A stretch of DNA of 64,000 nucleotides from a virus. This document shows positions 1 through 63,856 of the stretch, piece after piece. A program made the translations under genes and the position numbers. Numbering within the stretch: position 1 is the first letter of the stretch; each line of letters opens with the position of its first letter. The notes under the pieces were generated by a model. It searched no databases. It saw nothing but the letters and a program-made list of their open reading frames with translations, and was not told the origin of the DNA. Location of the stretch: the IMG/VR virus record IMGVR_UViG_3300047564_004450, positions 1 through 64,000 of that record. The stretch is one strand, 5' to 3'.

Positions 1-905
1 ACATTGATGGAATTCGTGAACCAGTTGCTGGTTCTCTGATGTACGGAAACAACATCATCTCTGGTGCCGTTGTTCCTTCTTCTAATGCGATTGGTCTGCA
101 CTTCTACCCCATCTGGGAAGCTGCATCTCTTGATGAATGGCTTTATAACGGTGGACCTTTCCAACTTGTTGTATTTCACTTCCTCATCGGCATCTATGCT
201 TACATGGGACGTGAATGGGAACTCTCCTATCGTCTGGGTATGCGTCCTTGGATCTGCGTTGCTTATAGTGCTCCTGTTGCTGCTGCATCTGCTGTATTCC
301 TGGTCTATCCTTTCGGTCAAGGTTCTTTCTCTGATGCGATGCCTTTGGGTATCTCTGGTACGTTTAACTACATGCTTGTCTTCCAAGCAGAACACAATAT
401 CCTGATGCACCCCTTCCACATGCTTGGAGTTGCTGGTGTGTTCGGTGGTTCACTCTTCAGTGCTATGCACGGTTCACTGGTGACTTCTTCACTGGTTCGT
501 GAAACTACTGAAACCGAATCTCAGAACTATGGTTACAAGTTCGGTCAAGAAGAAGAGACCTACAACATTGTTGCTGCTCACGGGTATTTCGGTCGTCTGA
601 TCTTCCAATATGCTTCGTTCAACAACTCTCGTTCACTGCACTTCTTCCTTGCTGCCTGGCCTGTTGTAGGCATCTGGTTTACTGCTCTTGGTGTTAGCAC
701 CATGGCATTCAACCTGAATGGTTTCAACTTCAACCAGAGCATCATTGATGGTCAGGGTCGTGTGCTCAACACTTGGGCAGATGTTCTGAACCGTGCTGGA
801 CTTGGAATGGAAGTAATGCACGAGCGCAATGCTCACAACTTCCCTCTGGACCTTGCTGCTGCTGAGTCAACTCCTGTTGCTCTGACTGCTCCTGCCATTG
901 GTTGA
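1..905 (+). CDS. psbA: Photosystem II D1 protein, 5' end missing
   Basis: The frame is open from base 3 and carries the last 300 of about 359 residues of D1, so only the first ~59 are cut off by the window edge. D1 is the reaction-centre subunit that binds the chlorophylls, QB and the Mn cluster and is rapidly photodamaged. Visible landmarks are His118 (in the VVFHFL segment), the NILMHPFHM helix holding His190, His195 and His198, and a C-terminal LDLAAAES segment with the processing site after Ala344. Residue 130 is Glu (MGREW), the form found in high-light D1:2 isoforms. The phage copy is known in this virus group to sustain photosynthesis during infection. Composition is more GC-rich than most neighbours. 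Identity is certain. Confidence 0.98.
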
Positions 906-930
906 TATAAAACTGAATAACTGATATAAT
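902..930 (+). promoter_or_regulatory. Sigma-70-like promoter overlapping the psbA stop codon
   Basis: TTGATA (902-907), 17-bp spacer, TATAAT (925-930). The -35 box overlaps the psbA stop codon and the predicted start near 937 lies inside the 5' arm of the next terminator, so a transcript begun here would lack a complete terminator stem and could read into the small gene at 959. Prediction from sequence only. Confidence 0.55.
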
Positions 931-931
931 T

Positions 932-957
932 AAGAGGGTATAACAACCCTCTTTTTT
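932..957 (+). terminator. Intrinsic terminator after psbA
   Basis: An 8-bp stem, AAGAGGGT (932-939) with ACCCTCTT (946-953), loop ATAACA, running into a T-tract to 957. It sits 26 bp after the psbA stop codon, so psbA messages started upstream should end here. Confidence 0.85.
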
Positions 958-958
958 T

Positions 959-1081
959 ATGTCTCATAATCCTCAACACGAACCTATGGAACCCTGGGTA
1001 ATCTGGGCAGGAGTAGGTATGATGGTATTTACGATCCTTGTGTTTGTCCTGTTCACTCTCGGTCAGATTTATTGGGGATGA
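959..1081 (+). CDS. Small single-span membrane peptide, 40 aa
   Basis: The start codon follows directly on the T-run of the psbA terminator; the product reads MSHNPQHEPMEPWVIW and then a single hydrophobic span of about 24 residues (roughly 12-36, rich in Val, Phe, Leu and Met) ending in QIYWG. No Shine-Dalgarno is obvious. I do not recognise it as a known low-molecular-weight photosystem subunit, although its size and single helix resemble that class. Its place between psbA and psbD suggests, without proving, a role at the thylakoid or inner membrane. It could also be non-coding, but the clear membrane-peptide composition argues for a gene. Confidence 0.6.
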   Translation: MSHNPQHEPMEPWVIWAGVGMMVFTILVFVLFTLGQIYWG

Positions 1082-1094
1082 GCACTAATACTCA

Positions 1095-1128
1095 TTGACT
1101 TCTTTGTTAAGAAGTGTTAAGATAAATA
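1095..1128 (+). promoter_or_regulatory. psbD promoter: overlapping early and late boxes
   Basis: TTGACT (1095-1100), 17 bp, TAAGAT (1118-1123) fits a sigma-70-like promoter. A T4-type late box ATAAATA (1122-1128) overlaps the -10, so psbD could be read both early and late. It lies just before the AGGAGG ribosome binding site of psbD. Confidence 0.5.
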
Positions 1129-1149
1129 CTGTAAATAAATGAGGAGGAT

Positions 1150-2211
1150 ATGGTTTCATCAGCACTAACACAATCAAATTCACAGAGAGGATGGTTCGAT
1201 GTACTCGATGACTGGCTTAAAAGAGATCGTTTCGTTTTTGTTGGCTGGTCTGGACTTCTTCTTTTTCCCACTGCTTACCTTGCTCTTGGTGGTTGGCTTA
1301 CTGGGACAACTTTCGTTACGAGTTGGTATACTCACGGGTTGGCAAGTTCCTATCTGGAGGGTGCAAACTTTCTTACTGCGGCAGTTTCTACTCCAGCAGA
1401 TTCTATGGGTCATTCTCTTATGCTTCTCTGGGGTCCTGAGTCTCAAGGGGATATCGTCAGGTGGTTCCAACTTGGGGGACTCTGGCCTTTTGTGGCACTC
1501 CACGGGGCTTTCGCTCTAATTGGATTTATGCTTCGTCAGTTTGAGATTGCCCGTCTTGTAGGCATTCGTCCTTACAATGCAATCGCATTCTCTGGTCCTA
1601 TTGCAGTATTCGTTTCTGTGTTCCTGATGTATCCACTGGGTCAATCCAGTTGGTTCTTTGCTCCCTCTTTTGGAGTCGCAGCAATCTTCAGGTTCCTTCT
1701 GTTTCTTCAGGGTTTCCACAACTGGACCCTCAACCCCTTCCATATGATGGGAGTTGCTGGTATACTGGGTGGAGCACTGCTCTGTGCTATTCACGGAGCA
1801 ACTGTAGAAAACACACTATTTGAAGACAGTGAACAAGCAAACACATTCAAGGCATTTGAACCGACTCAAGAGGAAGAGACGTATTCTATGGTTACGGCTA
1901 ACAGATTCTGGAGTCAGATCTTCGGTATTGCTTTTAGCAATAAGCGTTGGCTTCATTTCTTCATGTTATTTGTGCCTGTCATGGGTCTTTGGACTTCCAG
2001 CATTGGTATCATTGGTCTTGCCCTTAATCTTCGTGCTTACGATTTTGTGAGTCAGGAGATTCGTGCAGCAGAAGATCCTGAGTTTGAAACGTTCTACACA
2101 AAGAATATTCTACTCAATGAAGGTCTTCGTGCCTGGATGGCACCAGTAGACCAACCTCATGAGAACTTTGTGTTCCCTGAGGAAGTTCTACCAAGAGGTA
2201 ACGCACTTTAA
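1150..2211 (+). CDS. psbD: Photosystem II D2 protein
   Basis: A complete 353-residue D2 protein, the usual length, partner of D1 in the photosystem II reaction centre (binds P680, pheophytin, QA and non-haem iron). Recognisable parts are the [16 protein letters not shown] start, the LYPLGQSSW-type Tyr-D helix (here MYPLGQSSW), the [13 protein letters not shown] helix with the P680 His ligand, and the C-terminal [19 protein letters not shown] segment. The start at 1150 is fixed by GAGGAGG six to seven bases upstream. It follows psbA with one small gene between and shares its GC-rich codon use. Cyanophages with psbD nearly always carry psbA too. No disabling change seen. Confidence 0.98.
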
Positions 2212-2220
2212 AATAAATAG

Positions 2221-2248
2221 AGGAGTTCCACAAGAACTCCTTTTTTTT
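2221..2248 (+). terminator. Intrinsic terminator after psbD
   Basis: A perfect 8-bp stem AGGAGTTC (2221-2228) / GAACTCCT (2234-2241), loop CACAA, then eight T (2241-2248). It begins 10 bp after the psbD stop codon. Confidence 0.88.
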
Positions 2249-2352: not shown

Positions 2353-3243
2353 ATGAAACTCTGGATGTTATGTAATCGTCTCACAAAGGAAACTTATGAG
2401 AGAGATCGATTTATAGAAGAATCAAATAAATATGGTATCGATTTTTCTGTAGTTTATGCAGATGAATTGGATTTGATTGTATCGCGGGATGATCGTAAAT
2501 CAATTCGATATCTTAATGATGCTGTTGCTCTTCCTGATGTAGTTCTTGCTCGTACTGGAAGTAGTACTGGATATTATAATCTTTCCGTGCTTCGTCAGTT
2601 TGAAAGGTTGAATGTCCCTACACTTCCCAATTCAAATTCGATTGAAGCTGCAAAGGATAAGATGTATGCTATGCAAATTTTTGGGCAGGCGGGTCTTCCC
2701 ATTCCCAAAACAATGCTTACTCGGTTTCCAAGTAATAGTGACTTAGTTGAAAAGCAAGTAGGTTTTCCCTGCGTTATGAAAGTTGTCACGGGATCTCACG
2801 GTGCTGGAGTTTATCTTTGTGAAAATGCAAAGCAATTTGAAGATCTTTCAGAACTTATTTCATCAATAGATTTTAAAAGTTCCATGATTGTTCAAGAATA
2901 TATTGATCAATCGAAGGGACGAGATATTCGTGTGATTGTTGTAGGTGGTAGGGTTATTGGTGCGATGCAAAGGAAATCAGTTGATGGATCTTTTAAAGCA
3001 AATATATCCAGAGGTGGAGTTGGTGAAGGTATTGAAGTAGATGATCAGATGGAACTTTTGGCAATTCAAGTTGCTAAGGTTCTTGATCTTGATATTGCTG
3101 GTGTTGATCTTTTATTTCATGAGGATGGTTATAAAATTTGTGAGGCAAACTCTGCTCCAGGGTTTAAAGGATTTGAAGAAGCACTTGAGATCAATGTTCC
3201 TCAAAAGATTTTTGATTATGCGAAGCTTAGATCAAAGGAATAA
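2353..3243 (+). CDS. RimK-like ATP-grasp ligase
   Basis: A 296-residue protein with the layout of the RimK/glutathione-synthetase ATP-grasp family, which joins a carboxylate to an amine (RimK adds glutamates to the C-terminus of ribosomal protein S6). Visible features: N-terminal substrate domain, PTLPNSNSIEAAKDKMY linker, ATP-binding VMKVVTGSHGAGVYL segment, IVQEYID and the RDIRVIVVGGRVIGAMQR core, then GVDLL and the metal-binding CEANSAPGFKGFEEA end. All elements look intact. RimK-like genes are known in cyanophages, but the target is not: it could be S6, another host protein or a small peptide. It lies just upstream of a glycan-modifying fusion gene. Confidence 0.85.
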   Translation: MKLWMLCNRLTKETYERDRFIEESNKYGIDFSVVYADELDLIVSRDDRKSIRYLNDAVALPDVVLARTGSSTGYYNLSVLRQFERLNVPTLPNSNSIEAAKDKMYAMQIFGQAGLPIPKTMLTRFPSNSDLVEKQVGFPCVMKVVTGSHGAGVYLCENAKQFEDLSELISSIDFKSSMIVQEYIDQSKGRDIRVIVVGGRVIGAMQRKSVDGSFKANISRGGVGEGIEVDDQMELLAIQVAKVLDLDIAGVDLLFHEDGYKICEANSAPGFKGFEEALEINVPQKIFDYAKLRSKE

Positions 3244-3246
3244 ATA
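3239..3246 (+). promoter_or_regulatory. Possible T4-type late promoter
   Basis: AATAAATA overlaps the stop codon of the ATP-grasp gene, about 25 bp before the start of the multi-domain glycan enzyme. It matches the late-box core ATAAATA, but in an AT-rich genome this may be chance. Confidence 0.35.
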
Positions 3247-3271
3247 AGTTAAAAAATAAGTGATTTGTAAA

Positions 3272-5551
3272 ATGATTGAAGATATTAGAGTTTTGTTTTT
3301 GGATGAAAATAAAGAAAAGGTATGGGAAACTGATTATATTGTAGATACTTTATTGCCATCGGACAAAAATAAAGAATTGACCTTCTCACCTACAATAGAA
3401 AATGTTCATGGATTGTTTGATGTTTTAGTTTTTAATTGTAGAAAGAAATCATTTAATGAAATCATAAACATTGTAAACATAGTAAACCCCAAAATAATAA
3501 TTCAATTATCCGATGAATATAAGAATGAAGATTTAAATCATTACAATAGATTATCAAAATATTGTAATCTTTATCTCAGACAATATCATCATGAAGGATA
3601 TGAGTATTTTGAAAATACTGCTCATATCCCTTTGGGTTATTGTAATGATGCTGGTTTAGATTTTATGGATTTTTTCCCAGATTCATTTGAAAAAATACCA
3701 AAAATAAAAAATAGATCTTATAATTGGGGATGGGTGGGAGATATGAAAAATGATAGATGGGAGATGTTGGATAAATTTTCCCAAATACATTCTCATACCT
3801 ATGCCACTAATACTTCAAAAGATGATATGATTGAAAGATATCTTCAATCAAAATTTGTTCCTTGTGGACGAGGAAATTCTACTTTAGATTGCTATAGATT
3901 GTACGAAGCATCAATGTGTGGGTCTATACCATGCGTAGTTGGATCCGTTAATGAAATATCGCAAACTTTTAAATATGAAGAATCTCCTCCATGGATTTTG
4001 GGCAGAAGTTGGGATGAAGTAGTTCATAAATGCAAACTTCTTTTACATGATGAGGAAAAATTACAAGAAGTTCAAAATGAAGTTCTTAAATGGTGGCATA
4101 ATAGAATAATGAAAATTAATAAAAAGGTTTCTAATTCTTTAAATGAAAACAGAATAGATTTAGAAAATATTGAAGATGAAATAGCATTAGATCATTATTG
4201 GCAAGATGATAGTATTTTTGGAGAAAACTGGTTTTCATATCCAAATTTGTATAAGAACGTAGTTAATTTGGCGAAAGATGGTGATATTTTTGTTGAAGTT
4301 GGTGCATGGAAAGGTAGATCAACTTCCTGCCTTGCTGTAGAAATTGCTAATTCCAAAAAAGATATTACTTTATACGTTATTGATACGTGGGAAGGTAGCA
4401 TAGAGCATTTAAATAATTCGGAAAAAGAATCTTTGCCAACTCTTTATGAAACATTCATGGCAAATATGAAGCCAGTTGAAAAATATTATTTTCCTCTAAA
4501 AATGACATCCGAAGAAGCATCAAAAAAATTCAAAGATAAGTCTTTAAAATTTGTTTTCTTGGATGCTTCTCATGAATATGAAGATGTAAAAAGAGATATT
4601 CAAAATTGGATTTCAAAAGTAAAGCCTGGTGGAATATTGGCAGGACATGATTATTATCCAGATGATGGAAGATATGATTGGTTTCCTGGGGTAAAACAAG
4701 CAGTTAATGAAACGATCAAAGATTTTGATATTAGTGAACTCTGTTTTATTCATAATGTAATTGATGATAATAAGATAAAGTTTGAAGGATTTCCATCTGT
4801 AAATTATATAAGCATAGAAGAAACGGAAGATAGAAGAAATATTTTACATAAAAAATTTGAAGAATATGGGATTGAAAATGTAACTCCCAGAATATATAAA
4901 AGATATAATGATGAAGAACATAAAATAGAATCTCAACTTTTACACAGATTAAGTATTGGAAGTAGAGGTCCAGTTACTTCCCATTTGAAGGCCATTAAAG
5001 AATGGTATTATGAAACCAATGAACCGTATACTTTTATTTGTGAGGATGACTTGGGATTTCAAACTGTAAAGTATTGGAACTTTACATGGAAAGAATTTTT
5101 TAATTCTCTGCCAGAGGATTGGGAATGTGTTCAGTTGTGTTTATTGCGAGAAGATTTTCACAGATTCAGCATTGGATTCAGAAACAGATGTTGGTGTGAT
5201 TGGTCTGGATGTGCCTACTTAATAAGTAGAGAACATGCAAGAAAATTGGTAGAAACATATTATCCAAATGATACCTTTACTCTAGATTATGTTGGACAGG
5301 ATATGTTTGCCAGAGAGGAATGGGCTAGAATACCTGTGATTGAAACTATAATATATTCAAACTTTGGGAAAGTTTATTCGTTCCCATTATTTGTTGAGGA
5401 TATTCAAAATTGCCCTTCAAGTTATTTTAATGCCACTGGAATAAGAACTGGAGAAACTGATCATCATCATCAAAATTCATTTAATATTTCCTTAGAATGG
5501 TGGAGATCAAATGCACAATTTAAAACTATAGACCAGTTAAAAGTCATTTGA
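3272..5551 (+). CDS. Three-domain glycan enzyme: exostosin-like + methyltransferase + GT25-like
   Basis: A 759-residue fusion. Residues ~100-270 resemble exostosin-type (GT47) transferases, with PCGRGNSTLDCYRLYEA then MCGSIPCVVG (193-225). Residues ~310-490 are a class I SAM-dependent methyltransferase: the glycine-rich FVEVGAWKGRST motif (337-351), IDTW, LDASHEYEDVKRD and KPGGILAGHDY (about 426-461). Residues ~505-759 look like a GT25 (LPS-type) glycosyltransferase: ISIEETEDRRN, SHLKAI and the FICEDD metal site, then a WSGCAYLISR segment. I chose ATG 3272 over a GTG twelve bases upstream; neither has a strong ribosome binding site. Likely role: build and methylate a glycan on a virion or host surface molecule. 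The substrate is unknown. Confidence 0.75.
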   Translation: MIEDIRVLFLDENKEKVWETDYIVDTLLPSDKNKELTFSPTIENVHGLFDVLVFNCRKKSFNEIINIVNIVNPKIIIQLSDEYKNEDLNHYNRLSKYCNLYLRQYHHEGYEYFENTAHIPLGYCNDAGLDFMDFFPDSFEKIPKIKNRSYNWGWVGDMKNDRWEMLDKFSQIHSHTYATNTSKDDMIERYLQSKFVPCGRGNSTLDCYRLYEASMCGSIPCVVGSVNEISQTFKYEESPPWILGRSWDEVVHKCKLLLHDEEKLQEVQNEVLKWWHNRIMKINKKVSNSLNENRIDLENIEDEIALDHYWQDDSIFGENWFSYPNLYKNVVNLAKDGDIFVEVGAWKGRSTSCLAVEIANSKKDITLYVIDTWEGSIEHLNNSEKESLPTLYETFMANMKPVEKYYFPLKMTSEEASKKFKDKSLKFVFLDASHEYEDVKRDIQNWISKVKPGGILAGHDYYPDDGRYDWFPGVKQAVNETIKDFDISELCFIHNVIDDNKIKFEGFPSVNYISIEETEDRRNILHKKFEEYGIENVTPRIYKRYNDEEHKIESQLLHRLSIGSRGPVTSHLKAIKEWYYETNEPYTFICEDDLGFQTVKYWNFTWKEFFNSLPEDWECVQLCLLREDFHRFSIGFRNRCWCDWSGCAYLISREHARKLVETYYPNDTFTLDYVGQDMFAREEWARIPVIETIIYSNFGKVYSFPLFVEDIQNCPSSYFNATGIRTGETDHHHQNSFNISLEWWRSNAQFKTIDQLKVI

Positions 5552-10419: not shown

Positions 10420-11117
10420 TGTTTACACATGTTGATTTGAATCTTCCCAATCTTAAAAGGGAAACTATAGATGGAATTCGATATTATAAAATCCCAGGAC
10501 AAGAAAATCTCCAAAGGCTGGTGTCGATTACTTCAGTCACCAGCCATTATAATAAAGAAAAATTTTCTGAATGGAGAGAAAAGGTAGGAGAAAAAGAAGC
10601 AAATCGTATCTGTAAAGAATCTACTTCTATTGGAACAGATACTCATACACTTACTGAACAATATCTTAAAAATCTTGATTGCAATTCTGATGTTCTTCCT
10701 ATGTCTGAAATGCTATTTCAGATTATGGTTCCTGCCCTAAACAACATAAATAATATTCACGCACTTGAAGGTTCCCTTTATAGCTCATCTCTCGGGATTG
10801 CTGGAACTACCGATTGTATCGGAGAATATACTGGAGATAATGGAATACCAGAATTAGCAATAATTGACTTCAAAACCTCAAAGTATCCAAAACCAAGAAA
10901 ATGGATTGAAGATTATTTCGTCCAATGTTGTGCGTATGCATGTATGCTTCATGAATTAACAGGTCTTTCTGTTAAAAAATTTGTTATTATCATGGGTTGC
11001 CGAGATGGCGAACTCCGTGTTTATGAAGAGTACGATAAGAAAAAATATTTTAATCTCTTGCTTAAATATATCAAAAAATTTGTTAATGATAAGGTAATGG
11101 ATTATGAGTGTATTTGA
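10419..11117 (+). CDS. PD-(D/E)XK exonuclease
   Basis: A 232-residue nuclease of the PD-(D/E)XK superfamily, similar to cyanophage exonucleases related to Cas4/MGME1. The active-site pattern is visible: Glu in ALEGSLYS, Asp in AGTTDCIGEY, the IDFKTSK strand with Asp and Lys, and the Gln of the VQCCAYACML helix. It would resect DNA ends in recombination-dependent replication. It overlaps phoH by one base and gene 33 by 14 bp. Confidence 0.8.
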   Translation: MFTHVDLNLPNLKRETIDGIRYYKIPGQENLQRLVSITSVTSHYNKEKFSEWREKVGEKEANRICKESTSIGTDTHTLTEQYLKNLDCNSDVLPMSEMLFQIMVPALNNINNIHALEGSLYSSSLGIAGTTDCIGEYTGDNGIPELAIIDFKTSKYPKPRKWIEDYFVQCCAYACMLHELTGLSVKKFVIIMGCRDGELRVYEEYDKKKYFNLLLKYIKKFVNDKVMDYECI

Positions 11118-11415
11118 CAATTTCATAGATTTAAATTTAGAAAATACAATGGATAAAGAATATAAACAGGAAATTAAAAAAGTCCTACAGGAAAAATTTT
11201 ATTGTCCGTCCAGGTTTGCTCAAGAAATTGAGAAAGTTGTTCAAGAAGAAAAAGTTTCTTACATTGATGCTATCATTTATTTCTGCGATAGAAATAAAAT
11301 TGATTTGGAATCAGTTCCAAAACTTCTTTCAAAACCATTGAAAGAAAAGATTAAATGCGAAGCAATTCATCTTAATTTTCTAAAGAAAACCTCTAAAGCA
11401 CGATTGGTATTTTGA
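11104..11415 (+). CDS. 33: Late transcription co-activator gp33
   Basis: A 103-residue protein matching T4 gp33, which bridges RNA polymerase and the sliding clamp to activate late transcription. The typical core is present: YIDAIIYFCDRNKIDLESV followed by KPLKEKIKCEAIHLNFL. The gene order 33-59-(...)-32 is that of T4. It predicts late promoters of the kind seen before the structural genes. A second in-frame Met (residue 16) is a possible alternative start. Confidence 0.8.
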   Translation: MSVFDNFIDLNLENTMDKEYKQEIKKVLQEKFYCPSRFAQEIEKVVQEEKVSYIDAIIYFCDRNKIDLESVPKLLSKPLKEKIKCEAIHLNFLKKTSKARLVF

Positions 11416-12339: not shown

Positions 12340-13068
12340 ATGACGTATAATATAAGTAATACATGTCAAATAGAAAATCTTTCAAATATCTATGAGCATG
12401 TTTTTGGATTTCCTTATGAGGGGTTTTTTGTTGAAGTTGGAGCTTATGACGGAGAATTCTGCTCCAATACAAGTGGACTTTCTGATTTTGGGTGGAATGG
12501 ATTATACATAGAACCAATTCAAAGGTCGTATGAACTTTGTTATAATAGGCATTATTATAACAAAGCCGAAGTAATTCGTTGTTCTATTGGGTCTGTTGAG
12601 GGAGAAATAAATTTCTATAACTCTTACAGTAGATCAATGGACAAAGATAGTCAAGATTGTTTATATTATCAATATTCAACATCAGATATGTCTGAAGTTT
12701 TAAGAACTCCAGACATAGAATGGATGAGTCATATATCTTATGATATTGTAAAGGTTCCTCAATATAGACTGGAAGTAATTTTAAAAGAACACAATGTACC
12801 AAAAAATTTTGATATCTTAGTAGTTGATGTTGAAGGGAATGAGTACGATGTTATGAAATCTTTTTCTATTGATTTTTGGAAACCAAAAATGATTATAATA
12901 GAATTAAAAGAATTAAATGAAAAATATCAAAACTTTTTGGATTACATAGAAGAATGTAAATTGATAAGAAAAAAAATAATTTCTCATGGATATAAAGAAA
13001 TATATAAAGATGATATAAACACTATATTTTTAGATACAGGGCTTGACATCCCTTCTTGCCACTGGTAG
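12340..13068 (+). CDS. FkbM-type methyltransferase
   Basis: A 242-residue SAM-dependent methyltransferase: motif I FFVEVGAYDGE (about residues 28-38), an acidic residue after strand 2 (YIEPI), and the FkbM-typical DILVVDVEGNEYDVMKSF segment (about 158-175). FkbM enzymes usually methylate sugar or polyketide hydroxyls. It sits between DUF1825 and gene 32, where T4 has no such gene, so it looks like an insertion into the replication block. Its AT-rich codon use contrasts with gene 32. It could act with the other glycan enzymes at 3272 and 38503. Confidence 0.85.
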   Translation: MTYNISNTCQIENLSNIYEHVFGFPYEGFFVEVGAYDGEFCSNTSGLSDFGWNGLYIEPIQRSYELCYNRHYYNKAEVIRCSIGSVEGEINFYNSYSRSMDKDSQDCLYYQYSTSDMSEVLRTPDIEWMSHISYDIVKVPQYRLEVILKEHNVPKNFDILVVDVEGNEYDVMKSFSIDFWKPKMIIIELKELNEKYQNFLDYIEECKLIRKKIISHGYKEIYKDDINTIFLDTGLDIPSCHW

Positions 13069-36386: not shown

Positions 36387-37205
36387 ATGGCATACGCAGT
36401 AGACGATATTACAGCATCCCATCAATTGAATGTGGGAGCTGGATATCCCCCAGCTTTATTGTTGGGACCAGCAAGAATTAGAGGTTCTAGTTTTATTGAG
36501 GGTCCGTCTGTATTTGGAAATCCTTTTATTTGGCCAAATGTTTGGGCAACTGTAATGATTGGTCCAAATACAAATTTAGATTCTCCACCTACTTTTGCCC
36601 CAGGTGCTTTATGTTGGGGTGGACCAGCATTGAATAATCCATATTCTTTAGCAACTATTGGAAATTCTGGTTTTTTTGGCAACGTTGATGTAGCTGGAAA
36701 TGTTTGTGCTGGATTTAATATAGTAGCACAGGGAGAAGTTGTTTCTAGGTGCGGTGCTCACATTCTATCGTTGAAAAAGAATTTTGATATTAAACATCCA
36801 ACAAAAAATGGATGGAGATTGAGACATACTTGCCCAGAAGGTCCAAGTAATGATGTTTATATTAGAGGAAAAGTTGCAAGTAAAGATTACATTGAATTAC
36901 CAGAATATTGGAGGGGGTTAGTTGATCACACAACAATCACTGTAAATTTGACTCCAATCGGTGCCCATCAAGATGTAATCGTAAAAAGAATCGATGAGAA
37001 TAAAGTGTATCTTCAATCAAAAGGAGGTATGCCAATCAATTGCTTCTATCACATTTATGGTGAAAGAAAAGATGGTGATAAATTAATCCCCGAATATAAA
37101 GGATTTAATCCCCAAGATTATCCAGGAGACAATACAGAATATTCTATTGTTGGATGGAATTACGACCAACGTGAAGATCAAACAACTAATCTTAAGAGGG
37201 CATAA
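36387..37205 (+). CDS. Virion protein sharing a C-terminal domain with its neighbour
   Basis: A 272-residue protein. Residues ~1-120 are a Gly/Pro/Ala-rich N-terminal domain. The rest is a module common in cyanophage fibres: KNFDIKHPTKNGWRLRH, then DVYIRGKV, LPEYWRGLVD, VNLTPIGAHQDV and INCFYHIYGERKD. The next gene carries the same module. Likely a spike-tip or short-fibre protein attached to the baseplate; no enzyme motif. Confidence 0.7.
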   Translation: MAYAVDDITASHQLNVGAGYPPALLLGPARIRGSSFIEGPSVFGNPFIWPNVWATVMIGPNTNLDSPPTFAPGALCWGGPALNNPYSLATIGNSGFFGNVDVAGNVCAGFNIVAQGEVVSRCGAHILSLKKNFDIKHPTKNGWRLRHTCPEGPSNDVYIRGKVASKDYIELPEYWRGLVDHTTITVNLTPIGAHQDVIVKRIDENKVYLQSKGGMPINCFYHIYGERKDGDKLIPEYKGFNPQDYPGDNTEYSIVGWNYDQREDQTTNLKRA

Positions 37206-37207
37206 TT

Positions 37208-37870
37208 ATGGCTGGAACAAATATGACTCCAAGAACGGTTGCAAAACCGAACTGCAGACCAAAACAAATATGGGCAATACCATATGGAAGTTTTATAAGA
37301 CCTCTACTTCCATATACGGGGGATGACAATAGAAGTTTTGATGTTTTCAATGGGTGCCAATTATATTATCATGATAGAGTTTTCGTTAATGATTTGAGAT
37401 GGACTGATGGATGTGGTGGGACATTATCATCAAGATCTTGCGTTTGGAATGCTAAAAAAAGTTTTGATATTCCCCATCCAACAAGAGATGGGCATAGATT
37501 AAGGCATGTATGTTTAGAAGGTCCAGATGCTGATGTTTATATTAAAGGAAAATTGGCAGAAGGAAATGTTATTAAACTTCCCGACTATTGGCCAAAATTA
37601 GTTAATTTAGATACTATAAATGTTACTTTAACACCGATTGGTGTATATCAAGAATTATTTGTTGAAGCAGTCCAATGGGGAACAAGAGTAATTGTTAAAA
37701 ATAATTTGGGCGGACCAATAAATTGTTACTATCAAATTATGGCAGAACGAATTGATGTTGAGAAAAATATTTCAGAATATGAGGGGTTGACGCCAATGGC
37801 ATATCCAGGAGATAATAGTGGTAGTACTATTAATGAAGGTCTGATATTTGATGGAGAATACAATTCATGA
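37208..37870 (+). CDS. Virion protein, paralogue of the preceding one
   Basis: A 220-residue protein with the same C-terminal module (KSFDIPHPTRDGHRLRH, DVYIKGKL, LPDYWPKLVN, VTLTPIGVYQELFV, INCYYQIMAERID) but an unrelated Cys-containing N-terminal part. The pair looks like a duplication in which the N-terminal domain diverged or was swapped. The end overlaps the next gene by 20 bp. Confidence 0.7.
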   Translation: MAGTNMTPRTVAKPNCRPKQIWAIPYGSFIRPLLPYTGDDNRSFDVFNGCQLYYHDRVFVNDLRWTDGCGGTLSSRSCVWNAKKSFDIPHPTRDGHRLRHVCLEGPDADVYIKGKLAEGNVIKLPDYWPKLVNLDTINVTLTPIGVYQELFVEAVQWGTRVIVKNNLGGPINCYYQIMAERIDVEKNISEYEGLTPMAYPGDNSGSTINEGLIFDGEYNS

Positions 37871-38534
37871 GGTATGTCCTCTAATTGTTTATCAAGGTAC
37901 AATTAGAACACACAAAGAATTTAAAGAAAAATATCTTGATGAACTTCGTGATTATTGGTTTAATGGATATGTACATGAAAGTCCAGAATGCTCTGGTAAA
38001 ATTTTTGCACATTTGAATGAAAACTATTCCGATTTTTTTTCCGAATTGAAAAGGAATGTTGATGGTTATTTTGATACACTCTCAGTTGATCATTCAAAAT
38101 TATCTTACCATGTAGTCAAAACTTGGGTAGGTTATCATGGAGATAATGAAACTCCATCAGTATCCCCACATACGCATAACGAATCGAATTTAAGTTTTGT
38201 TTATTATCTCAAAACAGATCCAACTTCAGATAAATTTTGCGTTTCTGTTCAGGGAGATAATAAAAATGAATGCATACGTGGACTTTTTGAAACTGCAGAA
38301 AAGCATAATTTAATTAAGCAATATAATAGATACAATTGTAGTGTCTATACGATTACTCCTGTTGAAGGAACTGTTGTAATTTTTCCAAGCAATATTGGAC
38401 ACTTCACTCAACAATATATTGATAGAGCAGATGAACGAATTGTTGTTGCTGGAGATATTAGAATAACTTTATCTGAAGATTCTTTCTATCATCATCAAGG
38501 ATCTACTCACCCGTCTCAGTGGCTTTCATTATAA
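37851..38534 (+). CDS. Putative 2OG-Fe(II) oxygenase
   Basis: A 227-residue protein with the pattern of phage 2-oxoglutarate/iron oxygenases: PHTHNESNLSFVYYLKTD (iron-binding His and an acidic residue) and VIFPSNIGHFTQQY with a later Arg (second His and 2OG contact). Such enzymes are frequent in cyanophages; substrates are mostly unknown. I use ATG 37851 rather than a TTG one codon earlier. Downstream of two fibre genes it may hydroxylate a virion protein. The 3' end overlaps a convergent gene by 32 bp. Confidence 0.75.
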   Translation: MENTIHEVCPLIVYQGTIRTHKEFKEKYLDELRDYWFNGYVHESPECSGKIFAHLNENYSDFFSELKRNVDGYFDTLSVDHSKLSYHVVKTWVGYHGDNETPSVSPHTHNESNLSFVYYLKTDPTSDKFCVSVQGDNKNECIRGLFETAEKHNLIKQYNRYNCSVYTITPVEGTVVIFPSNIGHFTQQYIDRADERIVVAGDIRITLSEDSFYHHQGSTHPSQWLSL

Positions 38535-61159: not shown

Positions 61160-63856
61160 ATGACAAGAAATAGATACAACACAGGAAGATCTCTCAGAAG
61201 AGATGCAACTGGAATTACCAGTGATAGATATAGTTACATTGGATTAGATCAGGTTGAACCTCATCTTGGTGATCCTTCGGTTGGTATCGCATCTACTGGT
61301 AATAATCCGCCAGGATTGGGACTTCCAAGATCAACTTATGTTTTAGCAGCTAGACCTGGAGATCCGAGAAGATATTGGATCGATCCATTTGATTTGGATA
61401 CTGACGGCATTCAAGGTCTGCAGGGAACTCAGGGTTCTCAAGGTATGCAAGGCAATCAAGGCACCCAAGGTATGCAGGGTCTACAGGGTGCCTTGAGTAA
61501 TTTCCAAGGAACCCAAGGGAGACAGGGAACTCAAGGTCTTCAGGGAAATCAAGGGAGACAAGGAACTCAAGGACTGCAAGGAGCACTTAGCAATTTCCAA
61601 GGAACTCAGGGAACAGCAAGTGGACAAGGTACTCAAGGTCTTCAAGGTCTTCAGGGAAATCAAGGAGTTCAAGGACCACAAGGAACTCAAGGATTCCAAG
61701 GGACAATAGGATCTCAGGGATACCAAGGTGTTCAAGGAATTGCAAATCAAGGTATTAGAGGAGATCAAGGTGTTCAAGGAGCTTTAAGTAATTTCCAAGG
61801 AACCCAAGGTGTTAATGGTCAACAAGGATTGCAAGGATTGCAAGGATTGTCCAACCAAGGTTTTCAGGGAATATCTGGACAAGCAGTATTTAAAGGAGAT
61901 CAAGGTGTTCAAGGTCTTCAAGGTGTTCAGGGTCCATTAAGTAATTTCCAAGGAACACAAGGAAGGCAAGGTCTTCAAGGTGTTCAAGGAGTTCAAGGTC
62001 TTCAGGGAAGGCAAGGTATTCAGGGTAATCAAGGTTTTCAAGGTGCCCAAGGATTTCCTGGAAGTGCTCAAGGAAATCAAGGAACACAGGGCGTTCAGGG
62101 ACAAATTGGAAACTTCCAAGGAACTCAAGGTAGACAAGGTGCTCAAGGAGTTCAAGGAGTTCAAGGTCTTCAGGGAAGGCAAGGTGGTCAAGGAGTTCAA
62201 GGAATTCAAGGCAGTCAAGGTTTTTCAGGAACTTCTCAAGGTGTTCAAGGAACACAAGGATCCCAAGGCGTTCAAGGTCCACTAAGTAATTTCCAAGGTG
62301 TCCAAGGTCTTCAAGGTCTTTCTGGATCTTTACAAGGTCTTCAAGGAGAACAAGGCGTTCAAGGACTGCAAGGACTGCAAGGAAATCAAGGCGTTTCTGG
62401 TCAAAGTTTTAATCAAGGTCTCCAAGGAAGGCAAGGTCTTCAAGGAGTTCAAGGTCAAATTGGAAACTTCCAAGGAACTCAAGGTGTTCAAGGAAGACAA
62501 GGAACACAAGGAACTATAGGAAATCAGGGATTCCAAGGAAGACAAGGAATACAAGGAACACAAGGTTTTCAAGGTGTTCAGGGGAATCAAGGTGTTCAGG
62601 GAAATCAAGGTATTCAAGGAAGAATTGGAACTTCTATTATTATTATTGGAACAGCCGCAAATATTTCCTCACAGTCTCCAGATCCATCCACTTACTTAAC
62701 AGCTACTTTTCCAGGTGCTCAACCAGGAAATGGTGTTGTTGATAGTGTTACCAATGAAGTCTGGGTATTGCAAGCCAATGGAACAACATGGGTTAATGTT
62801 GGAGATATTTCTATACAAGGTCTTCAAGGTCTTCAAGGTCCTCAAGGTGCTCAAGGATTCCAAGGAACACAAGGTAGACAAGGTGTTCAAGGTGTTCAAG
62901 GCATTCAAGGACTTCAAGGAAGACAAGGAAATCAAGGTGTTCAAGGTCTTCAAGGAATTCAAGGTCTTGCGGCAGCAAAACAATTGGGTGGTAAATTCTT
63001 ATATGATACTGTACAGACAATAGCAGATCCTACTGGAAATGGATATTTTAGACTTAGCACTGCCTGGACTGGAGCTTTTACTCAGTTTGCAATAGACGAA
63101 ACTGATTTTGAAGGAAATTCAATTGTATCGATACTGGATGCCGTTGAGGCTGTAAATAATCCACAAAAAGCTATCTTTACGTTTACAAAAATTGGAGACT
63201 CTAATACTTTTGCTTCATTCTTTGTTACCAATAGAATTACTGATGGAGCAGCATTCAGAAGTTATTTTGTAACGAAAATTAGTTCTAATGGATCTCCCGT
63301 TCTTAATGATCAATTTAATTTAGTAGTGTCATTTGTAGGTGCTCAAGGAACCCAAGGCAGACAAGGACTTCAAGGATTACAGGGAGTTCAAGGAAATCAA
63401 GGAGTTCAGGGCCTTCAGGGTGGAAACTCTGAAACATCTTTGATTGTTGCACTTGGAGATGAATTTACAAACATTGGAATTGGAACAAGTGTAGTAACAT
63501 TTAGGGTTCCATTTAAGTGTAGAATTACAGAACCACCAACAATTTCACTTTCATCTGCTGCAGTTGTTGGAATTACCAGTGTAGATGTTTTATATGCAGA
63601 TAGAAATGCTAGCCCAGCTTCCTTTAATTCTTGGACAAGTATATACTCAAGTCGGACAACAGTAGCAAATATCGCAGTAGGAAACTACCAAAGTGAAACT
63701 GGATTTGTTAATACCCCAACTCTCTTAAATTCACCAACAACATTCCCAAATCAAGTTTTAAATAGAAATGATCAATTAAGATTTGATATTACTGGAATAG
63801 GAACTGGAGGAAAGGGATTGAAAGCAATAGTTTATTATTCTAAGGTATCACCATAA
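61160..63856 (+). CDS. Collagen-like fibre protein, 898 aa
   Basis: Residues 83-490 are almost pure Gly-X-Gln triplets (GLQGTQGSQGMQGNQ and similar), broken by LSNFQGTQG or IGNFQGTQG every 30-70 residues. A globular part (~490-550), a second shorter repeat (~552-605), another globular domain (~610-725), a third short repeat and a beta C-terminal domain (~755-898, ending KAIVYYSKVSP) follow. The repeats should form a collagen-type triple helix with Gln in the Y position and almost no proline. Likely a trimeric fibre shaft with receptor-facing knobs. Repeats make four other frames open by chance; only this one is a gene. Confidence 0.8.
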   Translation: MTRNRYNTGRSLRRDATGITSDRYSYIGLDQVEPHLGDPSVGIASTGNNPPGLGLPRSTYVLAARPGDPRRYWIDPFDLDTDGIQGLQGTQGSQGMQGNQGTQGMQGLQGALSNFQGTQGRQGTQGLQGNQGRQGTQGLQGALSNFQGTQGTASGQGTQGLQGLQGNQGVQGPQGTQGFQGTIGSQGYQGVQGIANQGIRGDQGVQGALSNFQGTQGVNGQQGLQGLQGLSNQGFQGISGQAVFKGDQGVQGLQGVQGPLSNFQGTQGRQGLQGVQGVQGLQGRQGIQGNQGFQGAQGFPGSAQGNQGTQGVQGQIGNFQGTQGRQGAQGVQGVQGLQGRQGGQGVQGIQGSQGFSGTSQGVQGTQGSQGVQGPLSNFQGVQGLQGLSGSLQGLQGEQGVQGLQGLQGNQGVSGQSFNQGLQGRQGLQGVQGQIGNFQGTQGVQGRQGTQGTIGNQGFQGRQGIQGTQGFQGVQGNQGVQGNQGIQGRIGTSIIIIGTAANISSQSPDPSTYLTATFPGAQPGNGVVDSVTNEVWVLQANGTTWVNVGDISIQGLQGLQGPQGAQGFQGTQGRQGVQGVQGIQGLQGRQGNQGVQGLQGIQGLAAAKQLGGKFLYDTVQTIADPTGNGYFRLSTAWTGAFTQFAIDETDFEGNSIVSILDAVEAVNNPQKAIFTFTKIGDSNTFASFFVTNRITDGAAFRSYFVTKISSNGSPVLNDQFNLVVSFVGAQGTQGRQGLQGLQGVQGNQGVQGLQGGNSETSLIVALGDEFTNIGIGTSVVTFRVPFKCRITEPPTISLSSAAVVGITSVDVLYADRNASPASFNSWTSIYSSRTTVANIAVGNYQSETGFVNTPTLLNSPTTFPNQVLNRNDQLRFDITGIGTGGKGLKAIVYYSKVSP
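61406..62629 (+). repeat. G-X-Q coding repeat (9-bp period)
   Basis: Degenerate tandem triplets of the type CAAGGT/CAAGGA plus one variable codon run for 1.2 kb. Longer units ending in the LSNFQG interruption recur, so the array probably expands and shrinks by recombination. Confidence 0.85.

What the first reader, a model, noticed from the sequence alone, without database searches (positions are those of the whole stretch)
3272..5551. Fusion of exostosin-like transferase, methyltransferase and GT25-like transferase
Three glycan-active domains are joined in one 759-residue protein, ready to add, methylate and extend a sugar. This suggests a self-contained pathway for a capped glycan. Together with FkbM (12340) and the GT-like gene (38503) the phage has at least four glycan enzymes in this window.
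Basis: partly seen in the sequence, partly recalled or inferred. Interest (0 to 1): 0.72.

Follow-up and report, generated by a model that had tools for sequence, protein, structure and literature searches.

The report
Shuffled three-part sugar enzyme in cyanophages
This virus of photosynthetic bacteria carries a single protein made of two sugar-adding enzymes with a sugar-methylating enzyme between them, and related viruses keep swapping these parts at the same spot in their genomes, which suggests a plug-in system for changing the sugar coat of the virus or its host.

Summary
An uninterrupted 759-aa ORF (3272-5551, +) has three domains: residues 1-292, a GT-B transferase nearest RXYLT1/exostosin (GT47-like); 306-495, a Methyltransf_24 O-methyltransferase whose best solved match is the mycobacterial sugar-capping enzyme MeT1; 496-759, GT25. 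Scanned alone, the two GT domains pass their Pfam cut-offs; the methyltransferase passes in the whole protein. Motifs are intact, and all three domains are under purifying selection (dN/dS 0.08-0.34). The fusion recurs in five distinct versions from at least seven metagenomes, so it is no assembly error.

Two otherwise near-identical phages (flanks 87-98% nt) differ sharply here (68-73%). A late-promoter-like ATAAATA lies about 30 bp upstream in all four distinct N-M-C loci with complete upstream DNA.

"Capped glycan" is plausible; "self-contained pathway" and the implied order of action are not shown. Acceptor unknown: virion protein slightly preferred over host LPS. Closest precedent: chlorovirus A064R (GT-GT-methyltransferase). 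New variant of a known kind.

The parts
3272..5551 (+). Fusion gene, 759 aa (N-M-C architecture); possible GTG start at 3260
   Evidence: identical protein in two other contigs, full-length homologues at 61-70%
3272..4147 (+). N module, residues 1-292: GT-B glycosyltransferase, RXYLT1/exostosin (GT47)-like
   Evidence: Pfam RXYLT1_C on the isolated domain 28.2 bits vs cut-off 27, 36 of 37 modules match; AlphaFold pLDDT 89.8; fold matches to GT-B enzymes incl. EXT1-EXT2 and PBCV-1 A075L
3854..3943 (+). Conserved donor-site-like motif FVPCGRGNSTLDCYRLYEASMCGSIPCVVG (residues 195-224)
   Evidence: R-x-Y-E-x4-G-x-I-P in 35 of 39 N modules
4187..4756 (+). M module, residues 306-495: Methyltransf_24 (class I SAM) O-methyltransferase
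   Evidence: PF13578 67.7 bits vs cut-off 26.3; phmmer to MeT1 E 1.6e-6; Foldseek E 9.7e-10 and VIA Z 17.8 to MeT1
4289..4321 (+). SAM-binding motif I FVEVGAWKGRS (residues 340-350)
   Evidence: motif present in 83 of 84 M modules
4757..5548 (+). C module, residues 496-759: glycosyltransferase family 25
   Evidence: PF01755 on the isolated domain 26.4 bits vs cut-off 24; phrog_2835 E 4.8e-37; C-module profile hits solved GT25 proteins E 5.8e-9
5042..5050 (+). EDD metal/donor motif of GT25 (residues 591-593)
   Evidence: present in 50 of 50 C modules compared; invariant in A1 and A4
3240..3246 (+). Late-promoter-like ATAAATA, 26-32 bp upstream of the start codon, overlapping the end of the RimK gene
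   Evidence: same motif 33-39 bp upstream of the fusions in L003, L006 and L084 and 29 bp in L089; NATAAATA is the cyanophage late promoter (PMC2984593)
2353..3243 (+). RimK-family ATP-grasp ligase, directly upstream; conserved partner in L006 and L084, no match in L003
5600..5842 (+). Glutaredoxin (nrdC): fixed downstream border of the variable island
   Evidence: same border in cultivated phages
39..2211 (+). psbA (39-905) and psbD (1150-2211): fixed upstream border of the variable island
12340..13068 (+).
   Evidence: PF05050 E 7e-20

Best explanation
The gene encodes a soluble trifunctional glycan-decorating enzyme. A GT-B (GT47/RXYLT1-like) transferase and a GT25 transferase (GT-A by family) each add a sugar, and the O-methyltransferase between them methylates a sugar hydroxyl, giving a short methylated oligosaccharide. 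It is one member of a shuffled module set (RXYLT1-like N, MT24 M, GT25 C, FkbM F, TPR T, WavE-like W, GT2) kept by T4-like cyanophages at one site, between psbA-psbD(-rimK) and glutaredoxin; swapping modules should change the glycan. Shown here: the domains, their folds or family membership, intact motifs, purifying selection on all three, the shuffling, the fixed site and the excess divergence. Inferred: that all three are active, the order of action, and the acceptor. My leaning for the acceptor: a phage structural protein glycosylated late in infection (about 45%), then the host's LPS or other surface glycan (about 40%), other or DNA (about 15%). The confidence below is for the core claim, a three-activity sugar transferase/methyltransferase in a module-shuffling locus.
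For: Domains. N fold: (GT-B; 264 residues aligned to the methylmannose mannosyltransferase ManT at Z 13.2, EXT1-EXT2 at Z 13.7, Foldseek E 1.5e-5 to PBCV-1 A075L). M: MeT1 is the best match by sequence, Foldseek and VIA Z 17.8; sugar O-methyltransferases MycF, SpnH and NovP also listed. C: profile hits GT25 structures 8xlz E 5.8e-9, mimivirus R655 E 1.7e-6, COLGALT1 E 0.003; EDD in 50 of 50 modules. Selection: dN/dS 0.08-0.34 in every domain and pair. Shuffling: architecture census with Pfam confirmation of swapped modules, fixed site, at least 10 architecture changes on the N tree, N and C trees in conflict for L103 versus L091/L095 (AU p 0.003). Local divergence: window vs L006, psbA/psbD/RimK 93-98% and speD/thyX/phoH 87-95% nt, fusion 68-73%. 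Same phage on a longer contig: a 1241-aa GT2-GT25-FkbM-WavE protein next to a nucleotidyltransferase-HAD gene. Late-promoter-like motif.
Against: No activity, product or acceptor is known. The PDB shows no sequence relative of N, and the GT-B fold is shared by many GT families, so donor and linkage cannot be told. The full-length model is only moderate (pLDDT 73.6), and C was not folded alone. The ATAAATA enrichment is modest (6 of 35 starts, 1.8 expected; 9 of 2000 shuffles reach it); a single site has 5-28% chance in these AT-rich stretches. All full fusions are from uncultivated contigs.
Confidence: 0.74

Rival explanations
1. Host-surface remodelling: the enzyme alters the cyanobacterial LPS or other surface glycan during infection, to block other phages (superinfection exclusion) or grazers. 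Same chemistry, different acceptor from the virion reading.
For: Cyanophage LPS clusters are known and explained this way (P-SSM2: PMC2984593; jumbo phages: PMC7824862; pelagimyophages: PMC7029224). GT25 and WavE are LPS-synthesis families. Hypervariability fits surface antigens.
Against: A late-promoter-like motif upstream of all four distinct N-M-C fusions with complete upstream DNA fits late rather than early expression, which would be late for exclusion. The island holds no sugar-epimerase or export genes, unlike the published LPS clusters.
Confidence: 0.4
2. DNA modification: one or both GT domains glycosylate phage DNA, as T4 alpha- and beta-glucosyltransferases do, and the methyltransferase acts on DNA (phrog_2675 is labelled 'DNA methyltransferase').
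For: The N fold also matches T4 AGT (Z 13.8) and BGT (E 4.7e-4); PHROG label.
Against: All are generic GT-B matches. M is closest to a sugar O-methyltransferase. A review states that cyanomyoviruses show no sign of modified nucleotides or glycosylated DNA (PMC2984593).
Confidence: 0.05
3. Assembly or gene-calling artefact: neighbouring genes joined by mistake, or a decaying fusion with dead domains.
For: In L028 the M and C modules are separate ORFs, and in many contigs N is a separate ORF next to M-x-M proteins.
Against: Same protein at 100% in three contigs and the same architecture at 61-70% in others; no stops; all motifs intact; dN/dS 0.08-0.34 in each domain.
Confidence: 0.02

Closest known systems
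Chlorovirus PBCV-1 A064R (638 aa, GT-GT-methyltransferase)
   Same: One viral, soluble protein joins two glycosyltransferases and one sugar O-methyltransferase; it builds the methylated end of a glycan on the major capsid protein (PMC9614988).
   Different: Order GT-MT-GT here against GT-GT-MT; domain 1 of A064R is GT34-like GT-A, here the first GT is a GT47/RXYLT1-like GT-B; eukaryotic algal virus, no shuffling locus described there; acceptor unknown here.
PBCV-1 A075L (exostosin-annotated xylosyltransferase)
   Same: Related GT-B fold of the N module (Foldseek E 1.5e-5); viral capsid-glycan enzyme (PMC9614988).
   Different: Single-domain protein; no significant sequence match found.
MeT1 of Mycobacterium (methylmannose polysaccharide 1-O-methyltransferase)
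   Same: Best match of the M module by sequence and fold; blocks one end of a polysaccharide (PMC9883506).
   Different: Stand-alone cellular enzyme; about 20% identity, so the substrate cannot be transferred.
Cyanophage LPS/capsule clusters (P-SSM2 and other Kyanoviridae)
   Same: Phage glycan genes, including GT25, in variable regions of T4-like cyanophages (PMC2984593, PMC7824862, PMC7029224).
   Different: Those are clusters of mostly single-domain genes with sugar-synthesis enzymes; here modules are fused in one ORF at the psbD-glutaredoxin site, and the N module is absent from 50,697 phage records.

Membership tests
RXYLT1_C / exostosin GT47-like (N module) | Score above the curated Pfam cut-off | tested here: met
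   RXYLT1_C 28.2 vs 27 bits on the isolated domain, 36 of 37 modules match; 26.7, just below, in the whole protein; exostosin GT47 itself matched by only 6 of 37
RXYLT1_C / exostosin GT47-like (N module) | GT-B fold | tested here: met
   AlphaFold pLDDT 89.8; VIA Z up to 15.3 over 257 residues to GT-B enzymes, EXT1-EXT2 Z 13.7
RXYLT1_C / exostosin GT47-like (N module) | Donor and linkage specificity (e.g. UDP-Xyl) | not testable with these tools
   -
Methyltransf_24 sugar O-methyltransferases | Family score and SAM-binding motif | tested here: met
   67.7 vs 26.3 bits; motif I in 83 of 84 modules
Methyltransf_24 sugar O-methyltransferases | Acts on a sugar hydroxyl | tested here: inconclusive
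   Nearest solved relatives include sugar O-methyltransferases (MeT1, SpnH, MycF, NovP) but catechol and caffeoyl-CoA O-methyltransferases score nearly as high
Glycosyltransferase family 25 (C module) | Score above the curated Pfam cut-off | tested here: met
   26.4 vs 24 bits on the isolated domain, 17 of 22 modules match; 22.6, just below, in the whole protein; solved GT25 proteins E 5.8e-9
Glycosyltransferase family 25 (C module) | EDD motif | tested here: met
   50 of 50 modules
A064R-type trifunctional viral glycan enzyme | Two GT domains and one methyltransferase in one polypeptide | tested here: met
A064R-type trifunctional viral glycan enzyme | Same domain order (GT-GT-MT) | tested here: not met
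   GT-MT-GT here; so it works like A064R but is not filed as its homologue
A064R-type trifunctional viral glycan enzyme | Builds the methylated end of a capsid glycan | not testable with these tools
   -
Cyanophage LPS gene cluster (P-SSM2 type) | Multi-gene cluster with sugar epimerases or kinases beside the GTs | tested here: not met
   In the window the psbD-glutaredoxin island holds only RimK and the fusion; a nucleotidyltransferase-HAD gene lies elsewhere in the same phage
DNA-glucosylating enzymes (T4 AGT/BGT) | Hydroxymethylated bases in the phage | not tested
   Literature only: no evidence of modified nucleotides in cyanomyoviruses (PMC2984593)

The most novel reading that the evidence does not exclude
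A phage glycan 'assembly line': one dedicated locus in which catalytic modules are cut and joined into single proteins, so that recombination directly rewrites the methylated glycan on virions (or the host), giving phages a modular form of antigenic variation comparable in logic to modular biosynthetic enzymes.
Probability: 0.3. Interest if true: 0.78.

Novelty: new variant of a known kind. Interest (0 to 1): 0.56.

Why it matters
Trifunctional viral glycan enzymes are few; A064R is described as one of the few known with three transferase domains (PMC9614988). Here a comparable architecture appears in bacteriophages, not as one enzyme but as an interchangeable set at a fixed place beside the photosynthesis genes. 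If the modules are active, differences in domain order between near-identical phages become a natural experiment on how glycan structure follows module content, and on whether cyanophages decorate their own particles, a point that glycoproteomics of an isolate could settle. It also gives names to proteins that databases call 'hypothetical', 'glucosyltransferase' or 'DNA methyltransferase'.

Tried and rejected
N module against PDB sequences with a 37-row profile: only a chance ferritin match. N module in 50,697 phage records: no match. Genome scan for N: only two Bacteroidota loci, one a stand-alone 284-aa gene at 41% identity; patterns are strict, so this undercounts. NCBIfam: no match for the fusion. 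Sigma-70 promoter scan: no excess over shuffles. Idea that GT25 plus the 2OG oxygenase (37848) glycosylates hydroxylysine of the collagen-like tail fibre (61160-63856): dropped, because the repeats read mostly G-x-Q with hardly any lysine or proline (by eye). AU test of one F-N-C clade on N: p 0.0003, but not counted as evidence of swapping, because adding the second N of M-N-N-C removes the conflict (p 0.40). L111 (N-C at a contig edge) may be a truncated longer fusion and was left out of the test. N-F-C (L026) rests on one contig whose fetched DNA shows no border genes. Papers: no text naming such fusions in cyanophages was found, but the library lacks most subscription journals.

Full report
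What is there. The ORF at 3272-5551 (+) is open over 759 residues in a T4-like cyanophage context: psbA, psbD, a RimK-family ligase, the fusion, glutaredoxin, then speD, thyX, phoH, gp33 and gp32-like genes (gene order as in cultivated Kyanoviridae). The window's own record is a 66.7-kb virus contig; contig G001 (127.9 kb) holds the same region at 100%.

Three domains. Whole-protein Pfam scores are clear for the middle domain and marginal for the outer two. Scanned alone, the outer domains pass their cut-offs: RXYLT1_C 28.2 against 27 and Glyco_transf_25 26.4 against 24, with 36 of 37 and 17 of 22 relatives of each module also matching. The N module was modelled from 37 sequences at pLDDT 89.8 and is a GT-B transferase; Foldseek lists ManT, EXT1-EXT2 and PBCV-1 A075L among its best matches, VIA gives Z about 13-15 to many GT-B enzymes. 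The fold therefore fixes 'glycosyltransferase' but not the donor. The M module's best relative by sequence, Foldseek and VIA is MeT1, which blocks the 1-OH of a methylmannose polysaccharide (PMC9883506). The C module's profile hits solved GT25 proteins at E 5.8e-9, and its EDD motif is invariant in 50 modules.

Real and maintained. The same architecture occurs in five distinct versions from at least seven metagenomes. Between the four complete, distinct copies dN/dS is 0.08-0.34 in every domain, though synonymous sites are near saturation.

Module shuffling. Profiles built from the modules found, in 177 loci, the architectures N-M-C, N-C, N-F-C, F-N-C, M-N-N-C, M-M-N, M-C, C-M-T-F, C-T-F-W and others; F is FkbM, W WavE-like, T TPR. 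In L026 the MT24 module between the same N and C is replaced by FkbM; in L027 and L092 it is missing. Where flanks are available, N-M-C, N-C, F-N-C, M-N-N-C, M-M-N and M-C + C-T-F-W lie immediately upstream of the same glutaredoxin block, and several just downstream of psbA-psbD; N-F-C has no such flanks in the fetched DNA. Cultivated phages keep the two borders but have other genes between them, and no N module. On the N tree the architecture changes at least 10 times; the C modules of L091, L095 and L103 form one strongly supported group while their N modules do not (AU p 0.003; group chosen after seeing the trees). The two N modules of M-N-N-C fall in different N groups, so they are not a simple tandem copy.

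Excess divergence. Compared with L006, the window is 93-98% identical (nt) over psbA, psbD and RimK and 87-95% over speD, thyX and phoH, but 68-73% across the fusion and 76% in glutaredoxin. This is the pattern of a locally exchanged or fast-diversifying segment.

Expression. ATAAATA stands 26-32 bp before the start codon, and within 29-39 bp in L003, L006, L084 and L089. NATAAATA is the described cyanophage late promoter (PMC2984593), and gp33, the late-transcription co-activator, is encoded at 11104-11415. Over 35 starts of the window the motif occurs 6 times against 1.8 in shuffles (9 of 2000 reach it): suggestive, not proof.

Rest of the glycan equipment. The longer contig of the same phage carries a 1241-aa protein with GT2, galactosyltransferase-like, GT25, FkbM and WavE-like domains, beside a nucleotidyltransferase-HAD protein. 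FkbM at 12340 is confirmed.

Mechanism. Best reading: a soluble enzyme (no obvious membrane segment by eye) adding two sugars and one methyl group to a growing glycan; the nearest analogue is PBCV-1 A064R, whose two GT domains and methyltransferase make the methylated tip of the capsid glycan (PMC9614988). Sequential action in domain order is not shown. The acceptor is open: late-type promoter and the chlorovirus precedent favour virion proteins slightly; published cyanophage LPS clusters favour the host surface. DNA modification is unlikely.

Verdict. Observation confirmed; interpretation partly supported; new variant of a known kind (viral multi-domain glycan enzymes), with the module-shuffling island as the more interesting finding.

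Noticed in passing
L178:2098-5823 (G001:C1, same phage as the window): A 1241-aa protein with GT2, Glyco_transf_7C, GT25, FkbM, TPR-like and WavE domains, next to a fused NTP_transferase-HAD gene (156-1280) and a helicase that looks like uvsW.
   Followed up: partly
   Followed up: partly
window 37848-38534 (+): 2OG-Fe(II) oxygenase (PF13759) next to paired baseplate/fibre-like genes; possible protein or sugar hydroxylase.
   Followed up: partly
window 36387-37205 and 37208-37870: Two adjacent related genes: part of the first matches a second place about 1 kb downstream at 66-67% nt in two phages.
   Followed up: no
window 61160-63856 (+): Collagen-like tail fibre of G-x-Q repeats with almost no lysine or proline.
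   Followed up: no
window 2219-2243: Strong terminator-like hairpin directly after psbD, which would separate the RimK-fusion unit from psbA-psbD.
   Followed up: no
G007:C1:18378-19459, G008:C1:53552-54633, G013:C1:50102-51174, G006:C1:10645-11693: Photo_RC (psbA/psbD-type) genes split in two pieces in relatives, as expected for an intron or insertion.
   Followed up: no
L133:6019-6873 (Flavobacteriaceae bacterium GF1): Stand-alone bacterial homologue of the N module (41% identity) beside SusC/D-like genes and a peptidase-type ABC exporter; a possible source family.
   Followed up: partly
window 2353-3243 (+): RimK-family alpha-L-glutamate ligase directly upstream of the fusion (28 bp gap); protein 99% identical in L006 and 94% in L084, no match in L003; function in the phage unknown.
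   Followed up: no
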